A stretch of DNA of 64,000 nt from positions 248,001-312,000 of the forward strand of contig JAHHGT010000003.1 of NCBI GenBank assembly GCA_019359745.1. The letters run 5' to 3'. Every line of letters starts with the position of its first letter. The stretch's first letter is position 1. The stretch comes from Aphanothece saxicola GSE-SYN-MK-01-06B. Lineage in GTDB: Bacteria > Cyanobacteriota > Cyanobacteriia > PCC-6307 > Cyanobiaceae. The notes under the pieces were generated by a model that saw only the letters and a list, made by a program, of their open reading frames with translations, made no database searches and was not told the origin of the DNA. Shown piece by piece: positions 43,646-63,255 of this stretch. The position numbers and the translations under genes are program-made.

Positions 43646-43691
43646 TGGAGCCAAGCGGATTCGAACCGCTGACCCCCTGCATGCCATGCAG
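43646..43691 (-). tRNA. 3' half of tRNA-Ala(GGC): candidate attachment site of a genomic island
   Basis: On the minus strand this 46-bp segment reads CTGCATGGCATGCAG (anticodon arm, GGC), then the variable loop, then the T arm with GGTTCGAATCC, and the acceptor TTGGCTCCA without CCA. The D arm, the 5' acceptor strand and the 5' side of the anticodon arm's neighbourhood are absent; homology stops at 43,691. This is what remains when an element integrates into the 3' end of a tRNA gene: the old chromosomal 3' half is displaced from the intact gene. The intact copy should lie beyond the right edge. Confidence 0.75.
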
Positions 43692-43749
43692 ACTAACATC
43701 GCTTGCAAGTCTTTGCTTTGACTGCCTTCTGAGGATTTCTGTGGATGCC

Positions 43750-43769
43750 CGTTTGCAGAAGCGTTTGCA
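43750..43769. repeat. Direct repeat CGTTTGCA x2 near the tRNA fragment
   Basis: CGTTTGCA occurs at 43,750-43,757 and 43,762-43,769, 12 bases apart centre to centre. It lies about 60 bases inside the island from the tRNA fragment, the kind of place where arm-type binding sites of a tyrosine recombinase are found. This role is inferred. Confidence 0.4.
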
Positions 43770-44138
43770 AAAATTGCCTGCCACTTGAAGGAATCCCAGG
43801 GCGACTCTCCGATCTTCCTCAAGGTGGTCGACCCATCACGCCTGGGTGGCCCTGTAAAGCCCTCTACGGGGCGTGGAGGGGCAATGGGCAAAGACGACGT
43901 CGGCCGCTCTTCGGACCCCTTCCAGGTTCTTGTAGAGGGGCATCGAGGGGCGTCGGCCTCGTTGCTCGATCGATAACTGGCGCTTTCGGTTCTTGAGAGT
44001 GGTACCTGTCCAAGAGAGGTTGAGATTCAGGATGCGGTGAAGGATCTCCGACGGCCCAGCAATGGACTGAGGTGAGACAGAGGTTCATGGGGTTTTCGGT
44101 GCATGTATAGATCGTGCGCCCGCGCGTCCGCCCGCATG

Positions 44139-44159
44139 CCCGCCCGCATCGCGGGCGGG
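44139..44159. repeat. GC-rich inverted repeat
   Basis: CCCGCCCGC, loop ATC, GCGGGCGGG: a perfect 9-bp stem with a 3-base loop and no T tract. Function unknown. Confidence 0.5.
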
Positions 44160-44193
44160 AGGTTTGCAATGGATCCACCCCTGCAGAAGGGGT

Positions 44194-44319
44194 GAGATTG
44201 GGTTGAACGTTGAAATCCCATGCAGCGGAAGAGAAAACTCAACCCAATCTCAGTTGTGTCTTGGGTTGAACGCGAAATTTGGGTTGAATCTTTGGGTTGA
44301 ATCTTTGAGGGGGTTGACC
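44194..44319. repeat. GGGTTGA repeat cluster (iteron-like)
   Basis: The core GGGTTGA appears at about 44,200, 44,263, 44,281, 44,294 and 44,311 on the plus strand and inverted at 44,239-44,245. GAGATTGGGTTGA (44,194-44,206) and its exact complement (44,239-44,251) form a 13-bp inverted repeat. TTTGGGTTGAATC is repeated exactly in tandem at 44,278-44,290 and 44,291-44,303. Clusters like this are seen in plasmid iterons and in operators. Neither role is proven here. Confidence 0.7.
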
Positions 44320-44640
44320 AGGGGAGTTGACTCCTATTGGAAAGGTCTGCCTCGAAGGCCTCTCCTCTTGGGCGGATCCGCCCCTGAGGAGGAATCGAGG
44401 AGGATGAGGTTGTATTCAGTTTCTGTAACAGCCTGAATAGCCGAGGAGCAGTGGGTGATCGGGGGTCAAGTTTCTTCGCTAACGGTCAGGCGCTTGAACT
44501 AGGCCGTCCGCCCGGCAGCGACGGCAATCTCGGCGAGGCCGCCATGTGATCTAGCAGCATGAAGATGCACTCACAGCCAATGGGCCTGCAGCGAAGTCTT
44601 GTTCCTGAGAGGAATGCATAGGTCTATTCATAGGAAGTAG

Positions 44641-44669
44641 AAAAAAGGCCCCCGAAAATCCGGGGGCCT
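44641..44669 (-). terminator. Rho-independent terminator after the ardC-like pseudogene
   Basis: Perfect 9-bp stem (AGGCCCCCG, loop of 6, CGGGGGCCT) followed in the minus direction by six T residues. It lies 32 bases beyond the second, presumably original, stop codon of the ArdC-like gene. Confidence 0.85.
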
Positions 44670-44701
44670 GATGTCAGGATGTCAGCTAGAAGATCGGGTG
44701 A

Positions 44702-45721
44702 TCAACTGCGGCGATGATGTTGGCCCTGTGGCATCGGCGGAGCTGATGGCTCTCTGGAGGCTTTTGGGCTTGCGCTGGGCGCGATCATCTCCGCTGCCTT
44801 GGTGGCATCGCTGAGCAGCTTGAACAGGATCCTTGGGCTTTCCTGGAGGATCTGAATCCAATGATGGAGCTAGGCCGCATGGTTTTCACTGTTGCTGCCA
44901 ATCCCCAATCGCTGGGTCACAAGGAATGCCCCAAGCTCAGCGATCAGTTCTTCCCTTGCATAGGATTCGCTACCGAAACTATGCCGTCCGGTGACGCCAT
45001 CCCGATTCAGGCGCTTGGCTGCTCCGGTGGAATGAATCGCTTCATGGGCATGGGTGGCCAGAAACGCCTCATAGCTATGGAAGCTTCTGGAGCTTGGAAG
45101 CTCGATCCGATCCAATGACGGGATGTAGCAGGCGCAGTCGCCCCCGTAGATCACTGGCACAGGCCATGCGTGCAGCACGGCTCGCGCCTCTGCAAGCCGT
45201 TGCGATTCAGGCATGGGCTTGAGGTCTCCGATGGCTAGGGTGATGGCCTCCTCAATTCCGTTGCCGTGGAGGTCTGCCGCATTGAAGACGGCGGCAGGCT
45301 TGTAGCTGACCCACGTGGTGATCACGGGTTCACCATTGGCATCGAGTTGAGGATTGCCGTCTTCGTCCAGTTCTTCGTACTGATTGAACTGGGGGCGGAT
45401 GATGATGCAGGCCTTGCAGCCTTTCTGTGGTCCCCAACCCTGTTCCTTGGCTTGGGCATAGCCCAGCCATAGGGGTAGCTCGGATCCTCGGACGGCCATC
45501 TGCATTTCCAGCAGCACCGGGTTGCCACCCGTGTAGCAGTGTCCGGTCACTAAATTGCGATGGCAGCCACCTCGGCTGGGATTCCATGGTTTGCGCCAAG
45601 GATTCACGCCATCGGTCATCAGTTGGATGAGCGACTGGGTCAGGCGTTCTTCATGCCCAGTTTCAGGGATGCTGATTGGATCCTTGGCCCTTGGGCTCTT
45701 GTCGAGTGATTTCGTAGACAT
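44702..45721 (-). pseudogene. ArdC-like antirestriction / metallopeptidase gene with in-frame amber codon
   Basis: From ATG 45721 a 283-residue product matches ArdC proteins: an N-terminal ssDNA-binding domain (LTQSLIQLMTDGVNPWRKPW, WLGYAQAKEQGW) and a zinc metallopeptidase-like domain with HEAIH (226-230). A TAG at 44,870-44,872 stops it right after SENHAA. The same frame then continues for 55 codons with LHHWIQILQESPRILFKLL and SDATKAAEMI, the normal conserved end of the family, to TGA 44,702 just before a terminator. A single change of the usual Tyr codon (HAA-Y) to TAG explains this. ArdC protects incoming plasmid DNA from restriction. Confidence 0.8.
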
Positions 45722-45822
45722 GGCAACTGTTCGAAGGAATTGCTCCGCTCTGGCGGAACACCGTCGAACAGCCCCCGTGGGGAGGCCTCTACCTACCCTT
45801 GATCCAGTGGGGTGCGGCTCCA

Positions 45823-46476
45823 ATGGATCAGCGGATGGCGGCAGGAAGGACTTTTCACCGGGGGTTGAGGGAGCTGCTGTTGCACAATCCCTTGACGCGC
45901 ACCTGGAATGACGTTGTCACCGATAAGGTGATCCGGCCGATCGAGTGACTGGTGGGCGGTGCTGCCGCGGTTGCAGACGACACCCAGGTGCGGCTGGCAC
46001 GGAGGCTTGTGGAGGAGTTGGAAGGCAATGGGGGCGAACTCACCCCTCAATCGGCGGCGCTTCTTGGCGAGCACGTGGATCTGGCTTTCGATCTGGGCCG
46101 GCTGAATCGGTCCCTGTCACGGATGAATGAGGCGGGCCTGGGCTTTGAGGATCGGGTGATGCAGGTCACCACCCTTCTCGGTACGGGCGCTTACCGCCCA
46201 GGGCTGAGCGAAAGGGGTGACGTGGATCTGGGGCGCACCCTTTCCCTGAGGCGTGCGGTAGTGGAACGAGGTGGTTCTCGTGCCTACACCAACGCTGGTG
46301 AGCTGATGCGTCAGTACGGCATCGGTTCCCCGTTGGCAGCCTATTCCGCCAGCGGAGCGGCTTTGGCGGCAGCGATTCAGGCGGCTGTGGCGCTTCGAGG
46401 GAATGAAAGAAATGCCCCCGAAGAAGGGGGCATGGTTGCTGAGCTGGGCCCTCAGGCTGCAGGCTCGATCAGATGA
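45823..46476 (+). pseudogene. Unknown island gene split by an in-frame TGA
   Basis: ATG 45823 opens a 41-codon frame (MDQRMAAGRTFHRGLRELLL to KVIRPIE) ending at TGA 45,946-45,948. The same frame continues from GTG 45952 for 174 codons (LVGGAAAVADDTQVRLARRL, LLGEHVDLAFDLGRLNRSLS, LSLRRAVVERGGSRAYT). Because the two parts are in one frame and equally well formed, they are read as one gene with a nonsense change; a short gene followed by a GTG-started one is the alternative. No family was recognised. It is divergent from the ardC-like gene, and its 3' end contains a terminator that serves the opposite strand. Confidence 0.45.
46412..46433 (-). terminator. Terminator for the 46.5-46.8 kb minus-strand gene
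   Basis: Perfect 8-bp stem ATGCCCCC / GGGGGCAT with a 6-base loop. In the minus direction it is followed by TTCTTTC. It lies 36 bases past the stop of the gene at 46,469-46,792 and inside the 3' end of the plus-strand frame. Confidence 0.6.
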
Positions 46477-46792
46477 TCAGCGTCACGTAGCGCTTGGCGA
46501 TGTGATCGCTGCGCAGGTAGACGCCGATCCCTGATCGCTGCTGCTCCTGGCCTTCGCCGGTTTGGAAGCCCAGTTCGACAGAGAAATCCCCAACCGCCCC
46601 GATGCCGGCGTAGACAGGACCAAGGGAGTGGTACTGCCCAGCTTGCTCTGCTGCCGCGATGGCGGCTGTGCCGAGCATGGGTTGTTTCAGAGGTTGCGGA
46701 GCTACGGATGGCTTCGGTGTCTGAACCTCTGTCGATGAGGTGTTTCTCGTTGGGATCGAGTTGTTCGTTGAGACTGTAGTGGATGAGGCCAT
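46469..46792 (-). CDS. Small island protein, function unknown
   Basis: From ATG 46792 the product has 107 residues. It has a Ser/Thr/Pro/Gln-rich N-terminal half (STTVSTNNSIPTRNTSSTEV) and a more structured C-terminal half (YHSLGPVYAGIGAVGDFSVEL, RSGIGVYLRSDHIAKRYVTLII). No family was recognised. The frame has a terminator just downstream on its own strand, which supports it being a real gene. It overlaps the end of the convergent split gene by eight bases. Confidence 0.5.
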   Translation of the reverse strand: MASSTTVSTNNSIPTRNTSSTEVQTPKPSVAPQPLKQPMLGTAAIAAAEQAGQYHSLGPVYAGIGAVGDFSVELGFQTGEGQEQQRSGIGVYLRSDHIAKRYVTLII

Positions 46793-47326
46793 GGGTTGGC
46801 TGTTGTGCAGTGGAATGGCCACTGCGTCCACCCCCTCACAGCCCCCGTGGATAGAGATACTGGATCTAATGGATGGAGACCCTGCCTGGGATAGGAAAGG
46901 TTGAGATCTTCATCCGTGCTTGATGAAGACTGTTGGCGGTGCCTGGTCACCAAGTCCTGCAGACTGCGGTATTGCTGGAATATCCAGTGAAGCAGTCTGG
47001 TTGGTTTCCCGCCCGTGCATGGGAAAGCCATTGATGCGTCAGGCATTTGGCGCTTGCGGGTGCTGGCCAGCCTGTTCAGTTGGGAGGGAAATGAAAATAC
47101 TGCAGCCCGCGCACAGTCCCGTTTCACGTGAGCGCACTATTGAGAATAGAAGTCAATAGGGCTCTTGTCCGGGCCTCGCCTGGTCAGGAGTGCAGGGGTA
47201 CCCCCCTAGGGGTTTTTAGGTAGGGGTATTTCATCAGGGGGTGTAAGAAGGGCCTCCCGGATTTTTGGGGCATTTTTACGTGCGCGCGATGGCCCCTCTG
47301 TTTCACTGAAGTCCAGGGGGTGGCGG
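46793..47326. other. Intergenic region between island left end and the drm operon
   Basis: About 530 bases with no supportable gene. At 47,194-47,228 there are overlapping palindromes (GGGGTACCCC and CCCCTAGGGG) followed by TAGGGGTA, about 100 bases downstream of the drmC stop. They can fold into several stems and may end the drm transcript, but no clean stem plus T tract in the minus direction was found. Confidence 0.45.
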
Positions 47327-48115
47327 TTAGAGCTTCACAAAGAATCCACCAGTCACCAGATGCTGCAGGTGATCTCCGACCTGGTTGGCCCGCCAGGGCT
47401 CTCGCGTCAGCCAGCCAGCCTCGAAGTTGTGACGTTGCGCGGTTTCGCTGAAGTTGGCGCTGGTCACCAAGGCGCGGGCCCGGTCGGTCCCGACGTCAGT
47501 CACCACAACCTTCGCGTGCTGGTGGCAGCGCTCTGCGGTCTGGGAGAGAAGGCGGTGGTCGATGTAGGCCAGAGGCTTGGCGGGCCAGGGCCAAACGTCC
47601 GCATGGAACCACTGGCGGATGGCCTTCAACGGATCGGCTCCCAGCTTCCCTTCGATCTGAACCGGATGGAAGAACAGCTCCACACGCTTCAGCCGGCCGT
47701 CGCCAAGGCGCTCGGCAATGGATTCCAGTAACTCTCTGAAAGCTGCCGAAAGGCCGATGTTGTAGGTGGCAATGATCAAGCTCGATCGTGCCTGCTGGAT
47801 GAGCTGATCCACGGTGGCGAAGGTGTCGGCCGTCATGGAGTGGGCTGGTTCCGGACCAGACCACACGAAGCTCCAGCCATCCCTCTCCCGCTGCAGGGCC
47901 TCCTGCTGATCAGCCAGCTGCTCCAGCACCAGGGCCATCAGCCGTGGCTGGCCACCCTCGCGCACCATCTGCACCAGAAACGGTTCCAGCTGGCCACGCC
48001 CATCGGGGGAAATGCCGGCCAGCACGCCCTGCCAGCTGGTGGGCACATAGCTGAGCTGCCGCAGCGACGCGGCTACGGAACGCAGGGTCTGGGCGGGCAG
48101 CGACAGGCCCATCAC
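47327..48115 (-). CDS. drmC: DrmC-like phospholipase D-family protein
   Basis: The 262-residue product has a helical N-terminal half and a C-terminal PLD domain with one H-x-K-x4-D motif, CHQHAKVVVTD (H200-D207), followed by LVTSANFSETAQRHNFEAGW. With a single HKD motif it must dimerise to form an active site. DrmC of DISARM is a PLD-family protein of this size and always follows DrmB. Its start overlaps the drmB stop by four bases (ATGA). The family assignment rests on motif plus neighbours. Confidence 0.85.
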   Translation of the reverse strand: MMGLSLPAQTLRSVAASLRQLSYVPTSWQGVLAGISPDGRGQLEPFLVQMVREGGQPRLMALVLEQLADQQEALQRERDGWSFVWSGPEPAHSMTADTFATVDQLIQQARSSLIIATYNIGLSAAFRELLESIAERLGDGRLKRVELFFHPVQIEGKLGADPLKAIRQWFHADVWPWPAKPLAYIDHRLLSQTAERCHQHAKVVVTDVGTDRARALVTSANFSETAQRHNFEAGWLTREPWRANQVGDHLQHLVTGGFFVKL

Positions 48116-50022
48116 TCGGCTTCGGGGTAGATGAAGCTCCAGAAGCTGGGGTCGTCGTTGTCGTCGTGGACCGACACGGTGCGACTCACCAGGGCCCGAT
48201 CGAGGAACTCATTGCGTTGCTCGCAGGAAGTCTCGGCGATCAGCTCGCAGCCATGGCAGGCAGCACCGTGGGTCGGGCGGATGTCGAAGGGGTGGTTGGG
48301 GTCATGCTCGGAGCAGAACGGGTCGTTGCTGCAGAGCTGCGCCCGCTCGAAGGCCCTCTCCAGGTAGCCCACGATGCGCTTGCCGGCATCCACCAAGCCG
48401 CCGAGGGTTCCCTCGGAGCCCGAGGTGCTGGTGAGCAACAGGATGCCGTAGCCGATTTCCGGGTTGGCGTAGATGCGCTCCCGGATCGAGCTGGCTCCAT
48501 AACCGCATTCCAGGGCCATCTCGGTGATCAGGAGATGGCTGAGGCTGTGCAACAGGATGTAGGGGGCGCCGGGGAACGGGAACTGACTGCTGTCGAGTCC
48601 TCGCGACCGCAGCCAGTCGTTCTCGAAGGCCTTACTGAACTGGACGGATCGACCGGTCACGGCGTCGCTGCTGGCCCAGTCGGCGATGGTGGCGGGGTCG
48701 AACTCGATGAAGATTCCCTCTCCTTTGTTCTCAGCCGCCGGCAACCAGCGAAGATCGTTGGCCAGTGGCGCCCGGCCGTTGGTCCTGGTGGTGTCGATCG
48801 GCAGGCCGCCCAAACTGCTGGTGCGGGCGGTGAAGCGGGTGAAGCCCACCAGCGCCTGGACTTCCCGCAGGCGCTTCACCAGCAGCACCCGGCGGATTGC
48901 CTTGCCAAACCAGTCCGGTGGCTGCTCGGGCGTCCAGATCACGGCCTCGAACAGGCTGTCCTCCGCTGAGCTGGACACCCCATCCATGGGGCCGATGAGC
49001 AAGCGGAGTTCCTCATCCTTTGGCTGGGGCACCTCAGCGGTGCTGCCGCCACGATGGCCCTGGATCGCCTGCCAGAGCGCGGCCGGTTCCACCCCCGCAA
49101 AGGCGCTTCGCAGGCGGGGATTGAACTTCAGGGCTGTGGCGATGTCGCTTTCCGCCTCGATGGCTTCCAACTCAGCTTTCAGCTCGGTGACGCGCCTGGC
49201 GAGCCCGCCTGCTTCCTCTGGCAATGAGATCACAGAGATCGTCTCGCTGAAATAGGCATTGGTGGCCGATCGCACCAGCAGGCGGTTCTGGGTGCGTTCG
49301 CCATCGGTGCGGCATTCCTCGCTGTCGCGGCTGTAGCGGCCCAGCCAGGGGGTATAGCCGCCGCAATTGCCAAGGGCCTTGGTTTCGGGGATCAGGGCAT
49401 CGGCGAGCTTGCGGGTGGTACCTCCTTCTGCCTGCACGAAGATCTGGGTGAAGTCGTTGCCGGTGCCGGCCTCCAGCAGATAGAGACGCTCGTCGTTTTT
49501 GCAGCCGAACTGGTTGAAGCAGAAGTCACGCCAGCGGATGTCGCTGAGGTGGCCGTGGGGACAGGCCATCACGAACCGCACCGGCACCAGCTGGTGTTCG
49601 CCCTCGTCGTCCTTGTACTTCTTCCAGTCCTTGATGCAGCTGTCGTTGAAGTGCACCAGCAGGCGGGCACGGCAGATGATTCCCAAGGCCTCGCGGTCGG
49701 GGATCTTCTTCTGCACCACCGACCATTCGGGGAAGCGCAGGGCCTTGATCGATCCGCTGATCTTCTTGATCGGATCCACCTCCTTGGGAGGGGTGCGCAG
49801 ATCCACCCGCGCCGCGCCGGTCGCCTGGCGCGCCAGGCGGAGCAGCCGCGGCTCATGGATCTCGTCGCAGCCGCGATCGTTCCAGTAGTCGAGCCCGCCT
49901 ATCAGCACGGAATAGTCGGGCAGATCGACCATGGCACCCGGGCCATAGAGCTGCAGCACCTGGCTCTGGCGGGCTTCGCCGAGGGGGGGCGGGGCAGGTT
50001 TTCGTCGGGTGCTGGGCGGCAT
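48112..50022 (-). CDS. drmB: DrmB-like DUF1998 protein
   Basis: The 636-residue product has the DUF1998 region near the C-terminus: ILLHSLSHLLITEMALECGYG, ERIYANPEIGYGILLLTSTSGSEGTLGGLVDAG (in part), and a Cys cluster C564, C570, C589, C592, C600 (CHGCELIAETSC) that probably holds zinc. DUF1998 is the hallmark of DrmB. In DISARM DrmA and DrmB form a complex that binds DNA and hinders entry of unmethylated phage DNA. Start MPPSTRRKPAPPP at 50022, 34 bases after the drmA stop. Order drmA-drmB-drmC is the DISARM core. Confidence 0.9.
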   Translation of the reverse strand: MPPSTRRKPAPPPLGEARQSQVLQLYGPGAMVDLPDYSVLIGGLDYWNDRGCDEIHEPRLLRLARQATGAARVDLRTPPKEVDPIKKISGSIKALRFPEWSVVQKKIPDREALGIICRARLLVHFNDSCIKDWKKYKDDEGEHQLVPVRFVMACPHGHLSDIRWRDFCFNQFGCKNDERLYLLEAGTGNDFTQIFVQAEGGTTRKLADALIPETKALGNCGGYTPWLGRYSRDSEECRTDGERTQNRLLVRSATNAYFSETISVISLPEEAGGLARRVTELKAELEAIEAESDIATALKFNPRLRSAFAGVEPAALWQAIQGHRGGSTAEVPQPKDEELRLLIGPMDGVSSSAEDSLFEAVIWTPEQPPDWFGKAIRRVLLVKRLREVQALVGFTRFTARTSSLGGLPIDTTRTNGRAPLANDLRWLPAAENKGEGIFIEFDPATIADWASSDAVTGRSVQFSKAFENDWLRSRGLDSSQFPFPGAPYILLHSLSHLLITEMALECGYGASSIRERIYANPEIGYGILLLTSTSGSEGTLGGLVDAGKRIVGYLERAFERAQLCSNDPFCSEHDPNHPFDIRPTHGAACHGCELIAETSCEQRNEFLDRALVSRTVSVHDDNDDPSFWSFIYPEAE

Positions 50023-50056
50023 GGGTTCGGTTGGCTGTTGGCTCAGGTGGCTTGGC

Positions 50057-53000
50057 TCATTCGTCGGCGGTGATTTCCTCGCGGAAATTCACCAGCCGGA
50101 TCGGCACCGAGGGCTCCACATCCCGCAGGCTCCAGCCGGTGGAGAATTGCTTGTAGCCCTCGCCGGCATAAAGGGCATCGGTATCCAGCGGGGTGTGGAG
50201 CAGGCCCGCACCTGCTGCCTTGTCTTCGTGGGTCCAGTACTGGAGCTTGGCCTCCGGTTGCTGGGTGAGCTTCCACCAGGCCTCCATCAGATCGATCACC
50301 TGATCACGGACCTCTGTGGGCAGCAGCTGGTTGTGGCCATCGTCGGCGGCTCCGGTGGCAATGCAACGACTCTGCAAGGCGGTGGCTATCTGATCCTTGA
50401 TTCGCTGCAGGGCTTCGGCATTCATCGCTCCCTTGGGCGGAGCCAACTGGGGATTGCTGTGCCTGGCCATCGCCACCACGACGCCGGGTAGTCCGCGATC
50501 CAGGGCGCGGCTGGCGAAGGGTGTGCAGCTGGTGGCCTCGACATGGCGGTAGAAGGTCTGATGCCAGTAGGGGAACAGCTCGAAGTGGGAGCGATCGCGC
50601 GGACGGTTGGGGTTGAGCAGCACCAGCACCAGCCCCGGTTTGTTCTCCTCGGGGTTGGGGCTGAGCTGTCGGCCCACCCGGCTGGTGGCCTGGATGTACT
50701 CGGCGGCGGTCTTGGGCTGGTTGAGCACCACCATCAGCCCCAGCCTGGAAATGTCGAGGCCCACCGAAATCATGTTGGTGGCCAGGGCCACGTCGAGCCG
50801 TTCCTTGTCGACGTAGGGCCTGGAAAGCCGGTCCTTGGTGACGCTGATCCGTGCCGTGCTCACCCGTGAGGTGAGTTCTTCCGGCATCTCGGGCCTCCTG
50901 CGACTGGCGAACGGGACATCAACCCCCTCCATGGGGAGGGTGCGGTTCCGGTGGAACTCCTCCAGCTGGGCGCCCAGTTCATCTTCGAGGATGCTGCGGG
51001 TCACACCAAGTTCCTTGAGGTTGGAGAAGTACCCCAGCAGGGTCATGTAGGGATCGGCGGGATTCTTCGCTCCCATCCCTTTGTGTTCGTCCCACGCCTT
51101 CTGGGAAGCTGCCATCAGGCCCAGGTAGCTGCGCAGCAGCACGCCCTTGAGGTTGCGGCCGGGCGCCGAAAGCCCCACGTAGAGGCGGGCCTGATCGGGA
51201 TCCGGCACTGAGTGGGAGAAAAAGTTGTCCTCCCGCTCCGGCCCGGGCGGCGGAAACACACGGGACTGGGCCCGGCCGAAGAGGGCCTTGATCTGGGCTT
51301 CGGCCCGGCGGACGGTGGCGGTGGAGGCAATGATCTTCGGCGGCGGCGACTCTGGAGTGGGTCGCATCAGGTCTTCGATCACGGCCTCGTACAGACCGGC
51401 AAGGGTGCCGAGCGGTCCGCTGATCAGGTGCAGCTCGTCTTGAATCACCAGCTCGGGGGGCAGCAGCCGACCCTGAGGTATCTTCATGCCCGAGGGCTTC
51501 TCGGCCGGCCCCCAGAAGCCTGCGACGGCGTCACCTTGCGGCAGGTGGTAGTGGCTCACATTGCCAAAAAGTGAGGAGGTCTTTCCCACCCAGGGCAGGG
51601 CGGCGAACTTGTCGATGGTGGCGATCAGGAAGCAGGGCAGGCGGCGGTAGATCTGCTCATCCACGGCGAGCACCGGCAATGGCGTGCCCTTGTGGAAGGG
51701 GCACTGCCCCATGTGGACGAACTCCTGCTTCGCCTCAGGTGATCTGGGTTCTCGGCAGAAGATCTCCAACCGATCGGGATTCCGTGGGGGCAACAGGTGA
51801 AAGCCTTCCGCTTGAAGGGGACGGTTGCACCACGGACAGGTTTCGATCGGAATCGGTCTCTCTCCACCTCGCATCTTCCAGCGGTTGAGCACTGCGTGAG
51901 TGCACTTGTCATCCGGATCTCCAGGCCCTCCGAGCTTGTTGGGGGTGGCGGCCTTACCCACCCACATGCCGATCTCAAAGGGCCAGTCACCCAGTGGGTA
52001 GGGGTCGCCGGAGCTGGCGCGATGCAGCCGCTCCAGCTCCAGGGCACAGATCACGGTGGCGGCACGGCCGAGCTGGTCGAGGGTGAGGAGCCGCAGCGTG
52101 TAGCGCATCAGCACCGTGACGCCGGCCGATTCGATGCCGGGGTGGGCGAGACGCCGGTGCACCAGTGTGAAAGCGGCCAGGCCCAGGTAGGCCTCGGTCT
52201 TGCCACCGCCGGTGGGGAAGAACAGCAGCTCCACCATCTGGCGGTCGATCCGGCCCCGTTCAGACTCCGGTTGCGCCAGCCCCGGCAGGTTCATCAGCAC
52301 GAAGGCCAGCTGGAAGAAACGCCATTCGGGCGTGCGGGTGCCGCTCACCTTGCCGATCTGTTCGGGCGGCACCTTGGTGCTGAAGGCGGAGCGTTGCCTT
52401 TGGGCCCGGGCCATCACCACGTTCATGGTGCGGAAGGCTTCACGAACCAGAGGATCGCTGAGGAGCTGGATTCCTGCCTCGATGCGATCGGCGCAGTCCT
52501 GGGCCTGGCTGCAGAGGTTCTTGGCGGTTTCGTTGAGGGCTGGATCTTCGATTGGGTGGGCGGGCTGGCGTGCGATCCAGTGGCGGTAGGCCTTCACGAG
52601 CGGCTGGAGTTTGCCGATGATCTGCTCGCTCTGGGCCAGGTCCGCCAGGGCCTCCATGCCCATCGGTACGCCTCTGGCTCCCGTGGGCGGTTCCGGCAGC
52701 ACCCGAAGAACCTCAGCGGTGGGCAGCCAGGTGGTGGTGAGGGTGTGGGCGCGATCGGGTCGGGTGGGCTCGATGCCACCGGTGATGACGGCCACGTTGT
52801 GGCCGCTGGCGAAGCAGAAGTCCCGGCGGTACTGCAGCGCGGCAAGGGCTTCGTCGTTGTCCTGATTGGAAACGTTCTGCAGAGCGTCCCGACGGGGCGG
52901 AAAGCCTTGGGGGCAGTGGAGGCTCAGCTCCGTCTGGAAGGCGGTGAGGGGATCGCGGAAACGGATCTGGCTGCTCTTGGGGGGTTCGCGCTTGTTGAGA

Positions 53001-53599
53001 AGGAACAGCGACACCGAGAGCTGATCGCTGGGGTAGCCGAGTTTCTTTGGTGCCGGCTTGGCGATCCATCGCAGACAGAGTCCCTCGGGGTTGGCCTCCA
53101 AGGGGATGTCGTCACTGCTGCCAGGGCCGGAGATGGTGAAGCTTTTCTGCACCCGCCGGGGAGTCCGCTTCCAAACCTTGCTGGGGTCCCCCTCTGGTGG
53201 CGGGTCATAGTCGCCCCAGCTCACGGTGGCCTCCAGGCTGAAGCCGCGCTCAAGGATGAAACTCATGCCCAGGGAAGAAGGGAACCAGCTGCGGCGGGTG
53301 TTGGCCTGATCGAGGGAGTCGTTGGCATCGTCTTCGGATTCCTTCTTCTCCAGTCGATTCGCGGCGTCGTTGCTGGGGTCTTCGCCGGCCAACTCAGCGA
53401 AGTTCAGCTGGTGGTCAGCGGTCTGTCGTTCCGCCTCCTGCTGGAACACATGGGGTACCAAAAAGCCCGTCGTGTACCAGACAGAAGGTGGTTGGCTGAG
53501 CTGCTCATGGCGGCGGGCCATGTCATCCCAACCGGGGCCGATCAGATCGCTGCGCAGGGCGGCGACGAGTTGCTGACGGATCTGGGCGGAGGTGGGCAT
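50057..53599 (-). CDS. drmA: DrmA-like SF2 helicase
   Basis: From ATG 53599 (MPTSAQIRQQL) the protein has 1180 residues; an upstream ATG at 53677 adds a poor N-terminus. It has a long N-terminal region (1 to about 440), an SF2 motor with Walker A FPTGGGKTEAYLG (K467), the DExH box VIQDELHLISG (721-724), STATVRRAEAQI, and the C-terminal lobe NMISVGLDISRLGLMVVLNQPK then YIQATSRVGR. Between the Walker motifs lies a Cys-containing insertion (CPWCNRPL). It heads the drmABC operon and is divergent from the Fic gene. DrmA is the DNA translocase of the DISARM core. Confidence 0.9.
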   Translation of the reverse strand: MPTSAQIRQQLVAALRSDLIGPGWDDMARRHEQLSQPPSVWYTTGFLVPHVFQQEAERQTADHQLNFAELAGEDPSNDAANRLEKKESEDDANDSLDQANTRRSWFPSSLGMSFILERGFSLEATVSWGDYDPPPEGDPSKVWKRTPRRVQKSFTISGPGSSDDIPLEANPEGLCLRWIAKPAPKKLGYPSDQLSVSLFLLNKREPPKSSQIRFRDPLTAFQTELSLHCPQGFPPRRDALQNVSNQDNDEALAALQYRRDFCFASGHNVAVITGGIEPTRPDRAHTLTTTWLPTAEVLRVLPEPPTGARGVPMGMEALADLAQSEQIIGKLQPLVKAYRHWIARQPAHPIEDPALNETAKNLCSQAQDCADRIEAGIQLLSDPLVREAFRTMNVVMARAQRQRSAFSTKVPPEQIGKVSGTRTPEWRFFQLAFVLMNLPGLAQPESERGRIDRQMVELLFFPTGGGKTEAYLGLAAFTLVHRRLAHPGIESAGVTVLMRYTLRLLTLDQLGRAATVICALELERLHRASSGDPYPLGDWPFEIGMWVGKAATPNKLGGPGDPDDKCTHAVLNRWKMRGGERPIPIETCPWCNRPLQAEGFHLLPPRNPDRLEIFCREPRSPEAKQEFVHMGQCPFHKGTPLPVLAVDEQIYRRLPCFLIATIDKFAALPWVGKTSSLFGNVSHYHLPQGDAVAGFWGPAEKPSGMKIPQGRLLPPELVIQDELHLISGPLGTLAGLYEAVIEDLMRPTPESPPPKIIASTATVRRAEAQIKALFGRAQSRVFPPPGPEREDNFFSHSVPDPDQARLYVGLSAPGRNLKGVLLRSYLGLMAASQKAWDEHKGMGAKNPADPYMTLLGYFSNLKELGVTRSILEDELGAQLEEFHRNRTLPMEGVDVPFASRRRPEMPEELTSRVSTARISVTKDRLSRPYVDKERLDVALATNMISVGLDISRLGLMVVLNQPKTAAEYIQATSRVGRQLSPNPEENKPGLVLVLLNPNRPRDRSHFELFPYWHQTFYRHVEATSCTPFASRALDRGLPGVVVAMARHSNPQLAPPKGAMNAEALQRIKDQIATALQSRCIATGAADDGHNQLLPTEVRDQVIDLMEAWWKLTQQPEAKLQYWTHEDKAAGAGLLHTPLDTDALYAGEGYKQFSTGWSLRDVEPSVPIRLVNFREEITADE

Positions 53600-53706
53600 G
53601 GGTCGATTCTGGCCAGGTTGGCAAGAGACCACCGCCACTGGCCTGGAGCCGGGGCCCCGAGCGCAAAGCCAAGCCATCTTCTAATTTGAAGCAAGTTTGA
53701 AGTTCA
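53600..53706. promoter_or_regulatory. Divergent control region between drmA and fic, with TTTGAAG direct repeats
   Basis: The 107-base gap between the two divergent genes has an AT-rich patch at 53,678-53,706. TTTGAAG occurs at 53,685-53,691 and again at 53,696-53,702, one helical turn apart. The second copy lies just before the TTG proposed as fic start. This looks like an operator, possibly for the winged-helix tail of the Fic protein; that link is inferred. Confidence 0.45.
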
Positions 53707-55038
53707 TTGCACTTGACCACCCGGCTGCCCCGCAAGCCCCCTTCTCTCCAGGAGATGCTGCAGCGCTGCGGGGGACTGGAGGAGACGCTGCTGATGCTCT
53801 CCCGCCTGGCCACCGCGGCGGAAGGAGATGACTACCTGCACTGGGATGAGCTGCGCCATCGCCCGCCGCCGGAGGGGCTGAGCCATGAACAGTGGTGGCT
53901 GGCCGAGAAGCTCTCCCGCCGGCCCACCCCGCTGCCGCTTCTGGCGAGTGACGGACAGGCCTTCTGGTTCTCGCAACCGCCTGTTCTGCTCCAGGGCCTG
54001 CATCAGATCGACATGCAGGCCGGTGCCAGCGTGGTGGCTCCCGAGGCCGTCAACACCCGCTCCACCCGGGATCGCTATCTGCTGAGCTCGCTCATGGAGG
54101 AGGCGATCACCTCCTCGCAGATGGAAGGCGCCGCCACGACAAGGGATGTGGCCAAAGCGATGATCCGCAGCCGCCGGCCGCCCCGCGACCGCTCCGAGCG
54201 GATGATCCTCAACAACTTCCTGACGATGCAGCGCATCCAGGAGCTGCGGGACCAGCCACTGACACCGCAGCTGGTGCTGGATCTGCACCGGCTGGTGAGC
54301 GAGGACACGCTGGATGACTCTGCCGATGCCGGCCGGCTGCGCCCAGCCGGTAAGGAGGTGGTGGTGGATGACGTCTACGGCACCGTGTTCCATGTGCCAC
54401 CGCCGGCTGAGGAGCTGCCGCACCGAATGGAGGAGCTCTGCCGCTTTGCCAACGGCGAGACCCCGAAGGTGTTCATCCACCCTGTGGTGCGGGCCATCGC
54501 CTTGCACTTCTGGCTGGCCTACGACCACCCCTTCTGCGATGGCAACGGACGAACTGCCCGGGCGCTCTTCTACTGGGCGATGCTGCATCAGGGCTACTGG
54601 CTGTTCGAGTTCGTCTCGATCTCCTCTGTGATCAACAAGGCCAGGGGGCAGTACGAGCGCTCGTTTCTTCTCAGCGAGAGCGACGACAACGACCTCACCT
54701 ATTTCCTGCTGGCCCAGGTGAAGGTGATCCAGCAGGCCATCGCCAATCTGCATGCCTACCTGGAGCGCAAGGCCGGTGAGGTGGGGGCCCTGCAGCAGCG
54801 GCTGGAGGGAATGGACGGGCTGAACCACCGCCAACTGGCTCTACTGCGCCATGCTCTTCGGCATTCCGGCTTCCGCTACACGGTGCTCTCGCACCAGAAC
54901 AGCCATGGGGTGAGCCATCAGACCGCCCGCAGCGACCTGCAGAAGCTGGCAGTCCGTGGGTTGCTGCTTCCAGGCAAGGATGGACGGCGAGAAATCTTCA
55001 GGGTGCCCGAGGATCTCTCGGCGCGGCTGCCCAGTTGA
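53707..55038 (+). CDS. Fic family protein with C-terminal winged helix
   Basis: The 443-residue product (TTG 53707) has an N-terminal Fic_N-type region, an inhibitory helix of class II type (SSQMEG, 136-141), the active loop HPFCDGNGRTAR (274-285) with all catalytic residues, and a C-terminal winged-helix domain (LNHRQLALLRHALRHSGF, SHQTARSDLQKLAVRGLL). Fic enzymes usually transfer AMP to Ser/Thr/Tyr of target proteins. The start is weakly supported: no Shine-Dalgarno precedes TTG 53707 or TTG 53713, so it may be leaderless, or ATG 53755 may be used. It is the only plus-strand gene in the defence block. Confidence 0.88.
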   Translation: MHLTTRLPRKPPSLQEMLQRCGGLEETLLMLSRLATAAEGDDYLHWDELRHRPPPEGLSHEQWWLAEKLSRRPTPLPLLASDGQAFWFSQPPVLLQGLHQIDMQAGASVVAPEAVNTRSTRDRYLLSSLMEEAITSSQMEGAATTRDVAKAMIRSRRPPRDRSERMILNNFLTMQRIQELRDQPLTPQLVLDLHRLVSEDTLDDSADAGRLRPAGKEVVVDDVYGTVFHVPPPAEELPHRMEELCRFANGETPKVFIHPVVRAIALHFWLAYDHPFCDGNGRTARALFYWAMLHQGYWLFEFVSISSVINKARGQYERSFLLSESDDNDLTYFLLAQVKVIQQAIANLHAYLERKAGEVGALQQRLEGMDGLNHRQLALLRHALRHSGFRYTVLSHQNSHGVSHQTARSDLQKLAVRGLLLPGKDGRREIFRVPEDLSARLPS

Positions 55039-55289
55039 TCAGGCGGGCCTTGATCCTGGCGAAGAGGGACACCCAGACGGAGCTCGGCACGCTGCTGGGG
55101 GATAAAGCCAGAAGGGAGCGGCTGATGCAGCAGGGGGGGGCAGGCGATTGCTGACACCATGGCTGGGTTCTGCACGGGCGAGAGCCGCGACACTCGGTGC
55201 CGGTCGGGGTGTGCCCCCTCGGCCTCCTGCTGGAGCCCGTAGAGCACCGAAAAGCCTGAGGTGAGTAAGTGCGAGGACGGCTGGGCCGA

Positions 55290-57056
55290 TCAGGACGAAG
55301 CGACTGATGCTGCCGCCTCGGGCGCGCCCAAAAGCGTTCGGAGACGCTGGAGGAGCACTCCTCGGCGCGCCTGGTAGAAGTCGGAGAAGCCGAGAAAACG
55401 CTCCGGGACGCTTCCCAAGCAGTGGCGCTCGATGAAGGCATGACGGCGGTCGTCCTCGGGAAACGCGGATGCGAGCCAGTCGTACGGGAGCGCGGCGCTT
55501 TTCTCCTGGTTGAGGACCCCATCGAGCAACTGGAGATTGGCAAGCCGGTCGGATCGGTCGATCCATTCCAGGCGAACCTCAGCCTCCACTCCCTCCCTGG
55601 CGAGGCGGCTCTCGGAAAACCGACTGCGCGGGAAAACGTGATCGACATGGAACTCGTGCCGCAGATCGTGGAACGGAAAGAGCAGCGACAACAGCGGGAA
55701 CAACCGTCTGTCGCCGTAGGCGACATCGACAAGGTCTTCGAGCTCTTCCTGCTCGAATCGAAGCCCCTTGCCGCGAGAGAGCATGGTGGCCTCCACGGCC
55801 TCCACTGGGAAGCTCGTGGCACCCTGCTCACGAATCGACGTACGAATCGCGCTGAGAAGCGTGTCGAGACCACTACCCCACACACCGGCCTTCAACAGCG
55901 ACCGCACGAGCCAGCCACGGATCGCTTCGCGGTCTTCCCGGAAGGTGCTGCTGCTCAGGTAGTGGGCGTCGAGGCCCCGCTTGTAGAGCGAGTAGGCAAT
56001 GGGCAGGAGCGCGTTGTCGGCGCCGAGAGTCTGACCCGAGAAGCCAAAGTCCGCCACGAGCTGGATCGTCAGCTTCAGCGCGCGGGCGATGTCGCGCCAG
56101 AGACGTTCCAGCACGACCATGTTGTCGTGATTGAAGTTGGTGACATTGAATCCAACGCTGCCGATGTCCGCCAGCATGAGCCCGGCCTTGAGAACAAAGT
56201 CCTTGGACAATGAAAAGCCGAACCTTGTCGTGTTGAGATCATCGACGAGGCCATGGATCTCCTGGCGCGCGTCGAGGTTGTTCCACTGCGCAGTCGCGAT
56301 CGAGAGGAGCAGATCGGAGTACGACAGGACGGTGCCACCGCTGTTTGTCCGGATGAAGATGTTGAGCACCTTGTCGAGGTCCTGGGAAGACTCCTCGAAG
56401 AAAGCGATGAGTGGTCTGTCGTGCACGACGGCATGCAGGAGATTGAGGGTCCTGAAGGCGTGCCGGTTCGTCGCTAGCCCGGCGGCCTGGATGTACTCGA
56501 AGATCTCAGTGGCATCATTGAGGTTGAGGATCTTCCTGACGGGGAACCAGTGGCAAGAATCTGAGTGTTGAGCTCGCTCCTCGCCGAGAAAGCAGAAGTC
56601 GTAGGCCAGGCCACCTTCGTTGGCGTCGGCGTCGGCAGCGATGTTGATGTAAAGGCGCTTTTCGGGGAAAGCGTCCGGGTTGTTCCACCACATCCGCGGC
56701 TCCTTGATCGCGTGGCTGCCTCGTAGGCCGATATTCAGGGCGGTCAGCCGCTGCTGCCCGTCCAGTACAGCAATGACCGATTGGCCTACCGGGACTTCCA
56801 CCGGCGGGCAATGGGGACGCAGCCTCTGATGGTAGTCGCGTACGAAGTCATAGAACTTGTACTGGCGGACGTTGTCACGCTCGACGCTCCAGAAGAGGAA
56901 GGAGCCGATCGGATAGCCCTGCATGAGGCTGTCAAACAGGCGGGCGATCTGCTCTGGCCGCCAGACGAACTCGCGCTGGATGGCCGGCAGCACGTAGTCG
57001 TGTCGATGGATGTGATCAAGCGCGTGGCGGATCGTGATCGGGGTTTGGAAGGTCAT
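55290..57056 (-). CDS. DUF262-DUF1524 (GmrSD / ParB-HNH type) protein
   Basis: The 588-residue protein has an N-terminal DUF262 domain (LPAIQREFVWRPEQIARLFD; YPIGSFLFW; DGQQRLTAL at 99-107) and a C-terminal DUF1524 HNH-like domain (EFHVDHVFPRSRF, HVDH at 470-473; LANLQLLDGVLNQEKSA). In GmrSD and related type IV restriction enzymes the DUF262 part hydrolyses NTP and the HNH part cuts modified phage DNA. It is fused here in one chain. Codon use (more TCG, GTC and CTC) looks different from the drm genes, so it may have been inserted separately. Fic lies convergent, 251 bases away. Confidence 0.88.
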   Translation of the reverse strand: MTFQTPITIRHALDHIHRHDYVLPAIQREFVWRPEQIARLFDSLMQGYPIGSFLFWSVERDNVRQYKFYDFVRDYHQRLRPHCPPVEVPVGQSVIAVLDGQQRLTALNIGLRGSHAIKEPRMWWNNPDAFPEKRLYINIAADADANEGGLAYDFCFLGEERAQHSDSCHWFPVRKILNLNDATEIFEYIQAAGLATNRHAFRTLNLLHAVVHDRPLIAFFEESSQDLDKVLNIFIRTNSGGTVLSYSDLLLSIATAQWNNLDARQEIHGLVDDLNTTRFGFSLSKDFVLKAGLMLADIGSVGFNVTNFNHDNMVVLERLWRDIARALKLTIQLVADFGFSGQTLGADNALLPIAYSLYKRGLDAHYLSSSTFREDREAIRGWLVRSLLKAGVWGSGLDTLLSAIRTSIREQGATSFPVEAVEATMLSRGKGLRFEQEELEDLVDVAYGDRRLFPLLSLLFPFHDLRHEFHVDHVFPRSRFSESRLAREGVEAEVRLEWIDRSDRLANLQLLDGVLNQEKSAALPYDWLASAFPEDDRRHAFIERHCLGSVPERFLGFSDFYQARRGVLLQRLRTLLGAPEAAASVASS

Positions 57057-57126
57057 TCGTTTCGGGGCCTGCTATCGAAATGCAGAGGCTCGAAGAGGCC
57101 AAGTGCTGGATGCAGCGATGAGCTGA

Positions 57127-57324
57127 TCATTGCGAAAAGCCGGTTGGCCCAGTATCGGTTGTCTGGGTGATTTCGCGCCACTTCCTGCGCAAAGCGCTCG
57201 GCAGTGGGGCGCGGAACTGTTGGTGGCGCATGCCTCCCGGCCTTTGCAGCAGTTCATGGATCACCAGGAACCGCGGAACCCCGCCGATCTGAACAACAAG
57301 CTCGAGGGAGGCAAGAGCGATCAA
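57127..57324 (-). CDS. Short frame coupled to the DUF4011 gene, uncertain
   Basis: A 65-codon frame starts with TTG overlapping the stop of the large upstream gene (TTGA). It encodes SLELVVQIGGVPRFLVIHEL and a basic C-terminus (SALRRKWREITQTTDTG). No family was recognised. It could be a real small protein, a detached remnant, or chance. It occupies most of the 264 bases between the DUF4011 and DUF262 genes. Confidence 0.25.
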   Translation of the reverse strand: MIALASLELVVQIGGVPRFLVIHELLQRPGGMRHQQFRAPLPSALRRKWREITQTTDTGPTGFSQ

Positions 57325-60300
57325 GGGTGCTCCTGGGCATAGAGCCGACCATCCCGTTCGACCAGCAGCCGGTTCCCTAGCAGTTGCTCGAGGGCACCGG
57401 TGATCGCCTGCCGCTGCTGCTGGGTAAATCGAGAGCCGCCGGTGAGCCTGAGACAGGCCTCGCGCAGCAAGGCTTCCGGATCGATCGAGAGCGCCTCACG
57501 GGCGATGAGCAGCAGCGCCCCTCGGCGCTCGGCCATCGGCACTGAGTCGATGGCTCGGCCGGAATCGGGCGGCAGCCGGAATCCCTCCCATCGTTCGCAC
57601 TGGGTTCGGCTGACCCAGAGCGTTTCTTCACCATCCAGGTAGAGGCGCTGCTGTCGATGGAGGCTGGAGGCAATCGTCATCAGCCGCTCATGGGCTTTCT
57701 GGCTGAAAGCCCTGCTGTTCCAGCATTGGGTGACGCGAACCGTAGCCTCGCGCTGTAGGACCGGCGCCTCAACGGCCAAAAGGGAAATCAGCCGGTTCGC
57801 GATCTGCGAAGTGGCCTCGGAGGAATAATACGTGCGAAATTCGGTGTCCGCCGGCTCGAGGCTGGCCTTCGCATAGGGCCGGCCGAGCTCCATGGGCGCA
57901 GACGCAGGAACTGGAGCGGGCGGTGGCGGGGGTGGTGCATCCTTGGCTTTCCGTTCAACTTCATGGACCGCCGGGGCAGGCCTCAAAGCAGCGGATGGCG
58001 CAGGGGCCTCGAAGGCGTGGCGCACGGCCTGGAGCAGCCGCTGCTGCTCGCTTGCGGGATTGAGCTGCCACTCCAAAGACCAGACACGGTGCATGGTCCA
58101 TCCGAGTTGCTCGAGAACGGCGGTGCGGAGGCGGTCGCGGTCGCGAACGGTCTTGGCGGCGGCGTAAGCAGCGGCATCGCACTCGATGCCGATCCGGTAG
58201 CGGGAGAGGTTTTCGGGATCGATGACGGCCAGATCGATCCGGTAGTTTGCGCAACCCACCTTGCACTCCACCAGATAGCCCTCGCGAACGAGCAGATCAT
58301 GAATCTGTCGTTGCAGGCTGCCGTCGAAATCATTGACACGAAGGGGGCGATCGGCCAGCCGTTCCTGGCTGCGGCAGAAAGCAAGAAAGTCCTGCAGGTG
58401 GTGCACGGCACGGGCATTCGTGCGGCTGCGATCGATCTGTTCGGGCTGAAAGCTGGCGAATACATGGAGCGAACAGCGGGCACGGGTGATGGCCACGTTT
58501 AGGCGGCGTTCGCCACCTGGTTTGTTCAAGGCTCCGAAGAGCATCGAAAGCACACCGTCTTGGCGGGGCCCAAAACAGATGCTGAAGAAGATCTCATCGC
58601 GCTCATCTCCCTGTACCGTCTCCAGGTTCTTCACGAAGCAGTACTCGAGATTGTCTCGGGAGAACCAGCCCTCCAGCTCGGGCTCCCCTTCACAGGCCTT
58701 CTGCAGCAGGCTCTCGATCAGGAGCTGCTGGGGGATGCTGAAGGTGATCACACCAAAGCTGCGTTCGCCTGGCGTGTGGGCGCGGAGCCGCTCCAGCAGG
58801 AGTTCGACAAGGACACGGGCTTCGGTCTCGTTGTTGCGAACACCAGACTTGTAGTCACCGTTGCTGACCGGATGCCAGTGGAGCCCCAGCTCGCTGTCAC
58901 TGCGACAGGGGGCGGGGAAAAGGTTGAGGCGGCCGGAGTAGTAACACCTGTTGCTGAAGTCGATCAGCGCCTCATGGCGGCTGCGGTAGTGCCACTGCAG
59001 CATCTGCTGCGGCATGCCGCAGGCGATCGCCTCATCGAGAATGCTCTCGAGGTCATCGACTCCATCGCTGGCGTTGATGCCGTCGTCGGCGTTGCCCGGA
59101 CGCTGAAAGAACGACGAGGGCGGCATCTGCTTGTTGTCACCAACGATCACCACCTGCTCGCCACGGCCGATCGCAGCGATGGCGTGATGGGTTTCCACCT
59201 GGGAGGCCTCATCAAAGATGACGATGTCAAACCGCTGCCCATCTGCTGGCAGGAAGCGGGAGACAGAGATGGGGCTGGCCAGGAGGCAGGGCTTGAGTTT
59301 TGGCAGCAGGGTGGGGATGCGGCTGAACAACTGGCGCAGGGGTAGGTGCCGCTTTTTCTTCACGATCTCGCGGTTGAGCTCAGCCTGCTCGGAGCCATTG
59401 AGGCTGAGATTGCGGTTGGGCATGCGGCTGATCACCTGGGCGCGCACATACCGGCGGCTCAACTGCTGCACCTGGGCATCGAGGGAGCGGAACTGCTCCA
59501 CCAGGCTGCTGTGGCTGGAGCCGCTGAAGCGGCGCAGAGCCGGATCGGAATCAAAAAGCCGCTGGAACCAGTGGCGCAGAACGGCCGTGCGATAGGCCTC
59601 CTCCAGCTCCGCTAGGGGAAGCGAGGCTGCTGCAGCCCAGTCGAGCACTGCGGCAGGTCCTGAGCGACGGAACTCGGTTTCGAGCTCATGGGCGAGCGAT
59701 AAGCCGCGCAGCCCAGGCAAGTCGGCATTCAGCTCACCGAGCCAGGATCCGAGCTGGGCGATCGGCTCGCCACGCTGACCGGCGAGAGGCAGGGATGGGT
59801 GATTGAGCAGGCGTGCAAGCTCTGAGAAGCCCTCCTCCGCCCTGGCGTGCAAAGCCTGGAGTTCACTCTGTATAGCGGGCTCCAGAACGGCGGCATACCG
59901 CAGAAGAGCCAGCATCTCCGGACTGGCCTTGGCCATCGTCGCGAGCTTCACCCACTGGTCCAGGAGCGGCGGCAACCCCTGAGCCTCACCGCCCCAGCTG
60001 GGGAGTTGCCGCTGCAATGTCTGGCGCTCCTGCTCCAGCCGCTCCTGCTCCATTGGCAGATCACGAAGGGTGCGCAGATCCTCGAGCAGCCTCCGCAGGC
60101 CGAGCCCAGGTTCGCGCACGAGGCCGCGCAGCTGACGCCGGAAGAAGAAGGCCCCTATCCAGCGAAGCAACACGAAGCTACCCAGCAGCTTTTGCAGCCG
60201 CTCGATCAGCGGCTCGAGGTTGTGGTCGAAAGCGGCGGGCTGCCAGCGGCTGCGCAGATCGGTCTCCCCTCGACGCATCTGTTCTTCCTCCTTCTGCCAG

Positions 60301-63185: not shown

Positions 63186-63255
63186 CGGCCAGCTGCAGCG
63201 CCTCGCTATCGAGATCCACGTCTCTGGGGGGGTGACAACCCGGACGCTGGTGGGC

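What the first reader, a model, noticed from the sequence alone, without database searches (positions are those of the whole stretch)
43646..43691. tRNA-Ala(GGC) 3' half marks the left border of a genomic island
The fragment ends abruptly at the anticodon stem, with its 3' side facing the sulfatase region and its missing 5' side facing the defence block. That is the geometry expected of an attR site after insertion into the 3' end of a tRNA gene. It predicts that everything from 43.7 kb to beyond 64 kb came in as one unit and that an intact tRNA-Ala(GGC) and probably an integrase lie at the far right end.
Basis: partly seen in the sequence, partly recalled or inferred. Interest (0 to 1): 0.55.

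Follow-up and report, generated by a model that had tools for sequence, protein, structure and literature searches.

The report
Defence island inserted in tRNA gene
The tRNA fragment is the scar left where a 30-kb mobile block of probable anti-phage genes inserted itself into a tRNA-alanine gene of a cyanobacterium; this is a well-known kind of event, here unusually well documented, with the recombinase gene that probably did it still beside the tRNA but now apparently broken.

Summary
Confirmed. Window 43646-43691 (-) is an exact 46-nt 3' part of tRNA-Ala(GGC). The only other copy in the genome lies inside the single intact tRNA-Ala(GGC), 30,192 bp to the right in the same orientation. A tyrosine-recombinase gene starts 114 bp from that tRNA but is frameshifted. 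Two same-genus genomes show the empty site: lexA, tRNA, 549 or 572 bp, sulfatase. G000's left flank joined to its tRNA side aligns there as one piece of 692 and 671 bp. A third genome, G022, holds a related 23.7-kb island at the same site with an intact integrase. Paired GTTTGCAAAA-like repeats sit at both ends; the exact 10-mer occurs nowhere else in 56 kb. Cargo: DISARM class 1 genes, ProA, a GmrSD-like protein, Fic and ArdC. 'One unit' needs a caveat, because inner modules differ between the two copies. It is a new member of a known kind. The more interesting part is its integrase family, which Pfam scores weakly and whose relatives sit beside Ala, Pro, Val, Arg and Gly tRNAs.

The parts
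43646..43691 (-). displaced 3' part of tRNA-Ala(GGC); left border of the element (attR)
   Evidence: exact copy of C2:321838-321883; empty-site alignments stop at 43691
43692..64000 (.). in-window part of the element; it continues to C2:321837 (window-equivalent 73837)
43751..43772 (+). pair of end repeats GTTTGCAGAA and GTTTGCAAAA, 12 bp apart; candidate integrase arm sites (partners at C2:321735 and 321747)
   Evidence: chance level
44870..45823 (-). ArdC-like anti-restriction protein (ArdcN + MPTase-PolyVal)
   Evidence: phrog_7245
45952..46476 (+). 174-aa ORF, no family found, 78% identical in G022
46702..47127 (-). 141-aa ORF, no family found, 43% identical in G022
47327..48115 (-). drmC (DISARM)
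   Evidence: PADLOC DrmC 4.3e-155
48112..50022 (-). drmB (DISARM)
   Evidence: PADLOC DrmB 3.7e-66
50057..53677 (-). drmA (DISARM)
   Evidence: PADLOC DrmA 4.9e-249
53707..55038 (+). Fic/DOC-family protein, 443 aa
   Evidence: PF02661 2.2e-20
55290..57056 (-). GmrSD_N (DUF262-type) protein, PADLOC candidate HEC-05; no match in G022's island
57321..63185 (-). ProA anti-phage protein, 1954 aa; no match in G022's island
   Evidence: NF058533 1541.6 bits, cut-off 1500; PDC-S37
63256..64000 (-). drmMI (DISARM), cut by the window edge; continues to C2:315401
   Evidence: PADLOC DrmMI E 0

Best explanation
A 30,192-bp integrative element (one 46-bp repeat copy counted) entered the tRNA-Ala(GGC) gene by site-specific recombination in the anticodon arm, catalysed by a lambda-like tyrosine recombinase encoded 114 bp inside its right end. 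The element brings its own copy of the tRNA 3' part, so that the host 5' part plus the element's 3' part make an intact gene; the displaced host 3' part stays at 43646-43691 beside the sulfatase gene. Shown: both borders, repeat, orientation, integrase gene, two empty sites, a related island at the same site. Inferred: that this integrase made the insertion; that the paired end repeats are its arm sites; that the small HTH protein is an excision factor; that the frameshift leaves the element stuck unless helped in trans; that the cargo protects against phages.
For: Second exact copy inside the only intact tRNA-Ala(GGC), same orientation. Empty sites in G006 and G008, with alignments stopping at 43691 and running through when the flanks are joined. 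Integrase pieces next to the tRNA and an intact orthologue at the same place in G022. The outer ends and most backbone genes are shared with G022. End repeats at both ends in both genomes. Fold of a family member like lambda Int, Xer and Tn1549 Int. Lower GC inside: 0.629 against 0.693 and 0.692.
Against: G000's integrase is frameshifted, so present activity is doubtful. Inner modules differ from G022, so not all cargo need have come at once. Excision and recombination were not observed. The HTH companion has a match in only 13 of 78 loci around relatives.
Confidence: 0.95

Rival explanations
1. The fragment is a decayed tRNA paralogue or a piece of a segmental duplication, unrelated to any insertion.
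For: It is an isolated tRNA piece with no function of its own.
Against: Empty sites in two relatives pass from the left flank straight into the intact tRNA; the two copies are identical and in the right order and orientation; an integrase gene lies between them.
Confidence: 0.01
2. The element is a prophage remnant, phage satellite or conjugative element rather than a plain integrative island.
For: ArdC is common on conjugative elements (recalled). A different island at this tRNA in G017 has a D5-like primase-helicase, a feature seen in satellites (recalled).
Against: No structural, packaging, relaxase or secretion family among the island ORFs scanned. No phage record matches the G022 integrase at E 1e-5. 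Viral contigs gave 10 relatives of only 29-30% identity.
Confidence: 0.07
3. The defence genes were piled up at an old tRNA scar by successive insertions or homologous exchange, so 'one island' is a composite.
For: ProA, GmrSD-like and 340-aa genes are missing from G022's island, which has a 379-aa ORF of low third-position GC (0.41). Cargo at this tRNA differs in G017.
Against: Both outer ends, the end repeats, the integrase and the DISARM, Fic and ArdC genes are shared in order with G022, so the frame travels or descends as one element. This is compatible with the best explanation plus later module exchange.
Confidence: 0.3

Closest known systems
tRNA-integrated genomic islands as mapped by Islander (PMC4383910, passages seen), anticodon-centred class 'A'
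   Same: intact tRNA and same-orientation 3' fragment at the two ends, tyrosine integrase inside, length in the 2-200 kb range, crossover at the anticodon
   Different: the integrase is scored weakly by PF00589, the model Islander uses, and is frameshifted here
Tycheposons (Prochlorococcus and others; seen only through passages of PMC10872708, original paper not held)
   Same: cargo-carrying element of 4-200 kb beside a tRNA with a tyrosine recombinase; relatives of this integrase occur in Prochlorococcus and Synechococcus records
   Different: whether the recombinase belongs to the tycheposon recombinases could not be tested; the cargo here is defence, not nutrient uptake
Phage lambda integrase and Tn1549 integrase
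   Same: predicted fold of a family member (1z1b first in Foldseek, E 8.2e-5; 1z1g Z 13.2 over 322 residues, rmsd 18.4, and 6emz Z 13.1, rmsd 5.8)
   Different: 10-16% identity; tRNA anticodon-arm target; arm binding not tested
DISARM class 1 defence system
   Same: drmD, drmMI, drmA, drmB and drmC are all present
   Different: interrupted by ProA, GmrSD-like, Fic and a 340-aa gene; activity untested

Membership tests
tRNA-integrated genomic island (Islander criteria, PMC4383910) | intact tRNA gene and a fragment of the same gene on one replicon | tested here: met
tRNA-integrated genomic island (Islander criteria, PMC4383910) | 3' fragment displaced downstream of the tRNA, same orientation | tested here: met
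   both minus strand, fragment 30 kb 3' of the tRNA
tRNA-integrated genomic island (Islander criteria, PMC4383910) | integrase ORF inside (PF00589 in Islander) | tested here: inconclusive
   integrase present by PHROGs, profile and fold of a relative but in two frames; Pfam finds nothing at E 0.001 for the own ORF, and a relative scores 14.4 bits against a cut-off of 27.1
tRNA-integrated genomic island (Islander criteria, PMC4383910) | length 2-200 kb | tested here: met
   30,192 bp
Tycheposon | cargo-carrying, 4-200 kb, bordered by a tRNA, with a tyrosine recombinase (as worded in PMC10872708) | tested here: met
Tycheposon | recombinase of the tycheposon lineages and one of their seven tRNA sites | not testable with these tools
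   original paper not held
lambda-type tyrosine integrase | catalytic R, K, H/R, H, Y residues | tested here: met
   R252, K272, R352-H353, H375, Y384 invariant in 4 aligned members (roles recalled)
lambda-type tyrosine integrase | N-terminal domain that binds arm sites on both sides of the core | tested here: inconclusive
   predicted three-stranded N domain in the relative L054 and paired end repeats; no binding data
DISARM class 1 | drmA, drmB, drmC plus drmD and drmMI (definition recalled) | tested here: met
   PADLOC hits for all five
DISARM class 1 | anti-phage activity | not testable with these tools
   needs phage assays

The most novel reading that the evidence does not exclude
The island belongs to a large integrase family, weakly scored by Pfam, that spreads cargo, including defence islands, through picocyanobacteria. 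Its members keep cutting in the tRNA anticodon arm but switch between tRNAs, favouring those with like anticodon stems, the stem strands serving as core binding sites and the loop as the exchanged segment.
Probability: 0.3. Interest if true: 0.5.

Novelty: new member of a known kind. Interest (0 to 1): 0.3.

Why it matters
It fixes the exact ends of a defence island and shows that this tRNA is a variable site in the genus. It also points to an integrase family that Pfam-based island finders may miss; how that family changes its target tRNA while keeping the cut position would be directly testable.

Tried and rejected
Chance match: rejected. tRNA paralogue: rejected by the empty sites.

The 455-aa ORF as the whole integrase: Pfam found nothing. 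Reading the frames showed the catalytic half in one frame and the N half in another, and the family profile agrees.

Target rule: after the first 38 loci I guessed that targets have an anticodon stem with inner TGC...GCA, true (by my reading of the list) of 4 of 39 tRNAs in this genome, and wrote the guess down before fetching 40 more loci. Of these, 38 had a tRNA match within 600 bp of the integrase: Pro(UGG) 29, Arg(UCU) 3 and Val(UAC) 1 fit; Gly(CCC) 5 do not; 2 loci had none. Val(CAC) in L071 also fails. The strict rule is wrong as stated, and the loci are not independent, since most are Pro-type relatives.

Two origins of Ala(GGC) targeting: the tree seemed to show this, but the G000/G022 branch lies between the two large clades, so it hangs on the midpoint root. 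I do not claim it.

HTH companion as excisionase: matched in 13 of 78 loci; left as a guess. Its MerR hit is below Pfam's cut-off.

GGGCGCA repeats as G017's arm sites: the 10-mer GGGCGCAGAA occurs twice near one end, but the 7-mer is scattered through that island; undecided.

Papers: searches were. I saw passages of PMC10872708, PMC4383910 and PMC12416821, and listings of the rest. I saw nothing on this site there; the library lacks most subscription papers.

Full report
The fragment. Window 43646-43691 (minus strand) is the last 46 nt of tRNA-Ala(GGC). The window is G000:C2:248001-312000. A genome-wide search within 3 mismatches found two copies, both exact and both on the minus strand: C2:291646-291691 (the finding) and C2:321838-321883. 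The second lies inside an intact tRNA-Ala(GGC) (Rfam match C2:321838-321910). The 39 tRNA genes of this genome include one Ala(GGC). The copies are 30,192 bp apart. The gene beyond the intact tRNA is lexA.

Empty sites. Of 24 same-genus relatives, 23 hold the 46-mer within 3 mismatches; 0 of 15 more distant genomes do. In G006 and G008 the order is lexA, intact tRNA, 549 or 572 bp, sulfatase, against 515 bp between the fragment and the sulfatase in G000. G000's left flank with the fragment aligns to those sites at 83-84% and stops at 43691, the last base of the fragment. With the left flank joined to the intact tRNA side, the alignment runs through: 692 bp and 671 bp at 84% (my join carried one extra A). 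The bases just left of the fragment resemble the empty sites, while those just 3' of the intact tRNA do not. So the fragment is the host's own displaced end, and the element begins directly after the intact tRNA.

State of the site in the 23 relatives. Empty: 2 (G006, G008). Further copies of the 46-mer: 5 (G014, 2.2 kb apart; G017, 22 kb; G022, 23.7 kb; G020 and G023 on other contigs). TRNA and sulfatase 2.2-7.6 kb apart with no second copy in the stretch: 3 (G003, G009, G024, up to 6 substitutions). Not decided: 13, where the sulfatase was not in the stretch fetched. The site is variable in the genus.

The integrase. Next to the tRNA, reading away from it, lies a tyrosine-recombinase gene. 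In G000 its N part (C2:321235-321723) and catalytic part (C2:320513-321283) are in different frames, so the gene is frameshifted near its middle; an assembly error is not excluded. In G022 the orthologue is one open frame, 405 aa from the likely start, 84% identical to the N part and 94% to the C part. Putative catalytic residues are invariant in four members. PHROGs calls all 4 members of A1 integrases and matches G000's own ORF at 2.6e-6. Pfam and NCBIfam give nothing at E 0.001 for the G022 and G017 proteins. With a lax limit PF00589 matches 11 of 12 members of A2, best E 8.9e-5; the one member whose score is shown has 14.4 bits against a cut-off of 27.1. A model of the relative L054 (446 aa, mean pLDDT 81.4, pTM 0.48), not of G000's own protein, has lambda integrase first in Foldseek (1z1b, E 8.2e-5, TM 0.35-0.41). 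In VIA-align XerA has Z 14.3 (rmsd 13.6), lambda Int 13.2 (rmsd 18.4) and Tn1549 Int 13.1 (rmsd 5.8); the large rmsd values fit flexible domains but limit what can be read from them.

End repeats. GTTTGCAAAA occurs three times in the 56 kb searched, at C2:291763, 321735 and 321747, all just inside the att cores. With GTTTGCAGAA at 291751 there are two at each end, 12 bp apart, in the same direction. G022 has like pairs at both ends. First-order Markov simulations give a mean of 0.01 exact copies per 56 kb, largest 1 of 200 runs. I read them as integrase arm sites; this is inference. G017, whose integrase is 38% identical and lies at the fragment end, has none of them.

Cargo. From the right end: HTH ORF, drmD, a 340-aa ORF without family, drmMI, ProA (1541.6 bits, cut-off 1500), GmrSD-like HEC-05, Fic (opposite strand), drmA, drmB, drmC, two small ORFs, ArdC. 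G022's island has the integrase, HTH, drmD (77%), drmMI (73%), Fic (96%), drmA (86%), drmB (89%), drmC (80%), a 141-aa relative (43%), the 174-aa protein (78%) and ArdC (81%). ProA, HEC-05, the 340-aa ORF and a 104-aa ORF have no match there at E 1e-5, and there is a 379-aa ORF of low third-position GC (0.41). DNA identity of the aligned pieces is 75-85%. G017's island at the same tRNA has other cargo: DUF499, DUF1156 methylase, SNF2 helicase, PP2C and kinases, D5-like primase. GC is 0.629 inside, 0.693 left and 0.692 right. A tree of the lexA-tRNA region does not group G000 with G022, but support there is weak, so separate gain and repeated loss are both open.

The wider integrase family. A profile search matched 41 of 42 genomes of the genus (the list is cut, and many weak matches are probably ordinary Xer-type recombinases). 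A scan of GTDB contigs gave 18 loci, in Cyanobium, Aphanothece, Vulcanococcus, Synechococcus, Prochlorococcus and unnamed cyanobacterial records. In 78 loci around family members (18 + 20 + 40; at least 4 contigs fetched twice), 57 partial tRNA matches were found. Of these 53 start at tRNA position 26-36; the other 4 start at 50 or 56 and look like cross-matches of related tRNAs. Targets are Ala(GGC), Pro(UGG), Val(UAC), Arg(UCU), Gly(CCC) and one Val(CAC). In the tree a Val(UAC) member (L083) lies in a clade with two Ala members (97/99), and the two Arg members lie in different clades. So the cut position stays while the tRNA changes. Islander's table lists 2083 anticodon-centred islands (passages of PMC4383910); Williams 2002 on sublocation preference is known to me by title and recall only (not held). 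My stricter stem rule failed a test written down beforehand.

Verdict. This is a textbook tRNA island with an unusually complete set of proofs, a defence cargo and an apparently broken integrase. Its kind is known; the integrase family and its choice of tRNAs are the part worth a further look.

Noticed in passing
G000:C5:249131-250300 and C5:260608-261807 (L095, L094): Two more members of the integrase family, 11 kb apart, each beside a 3' fragment of tRNA-Pro(UGG): probably further islands in this genome.
   Followed up: partly
L083 and L084; L089 and L099: Close integrases beside different tRNAs: L083 Val(UAC) groups with Ala(GGC) members, and Arg(UCU) members fall in two clades. Suggests target switching with the cut position kept.
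   Followed up: partly
window 55290-63185 and L034:10352-11491: The block between drmMI and Fic is swapped between two related DISARM islands: ProA + GmrSD-like in G000, a 379-aa ORF of low third-position GC in G022.
   Followed up: no
G000:C2:315411-316433 (L004:4412-5434): 340-aa ORF between drmD and drmMI with no hit in PADLOC, Pfam, PHROGs or NCBIfam and no match in G022's island.
   Followed up: no
L036-L037 (G017:C10:148000-172500): Different island at the same tRNA-Ala(GGC): DUF499, DUF1156 methylase, SNF2 helicase, phosphatase and kinases, D5-like primase; diverged integrase at the fragment end.
   Followed up: partly
L047:5346-5769 (G013): Broken drmA-like pieces (54% and 79% identity) near the same tRNA: perhaps the remains of a like island.
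   Followed up: no
G000, whole genome: The 39 tRNAs found lack Ala(UGC) and Ile(GAU), perhaps because ribosomal RNA operons are missing from the assembly.
   Followed up: no
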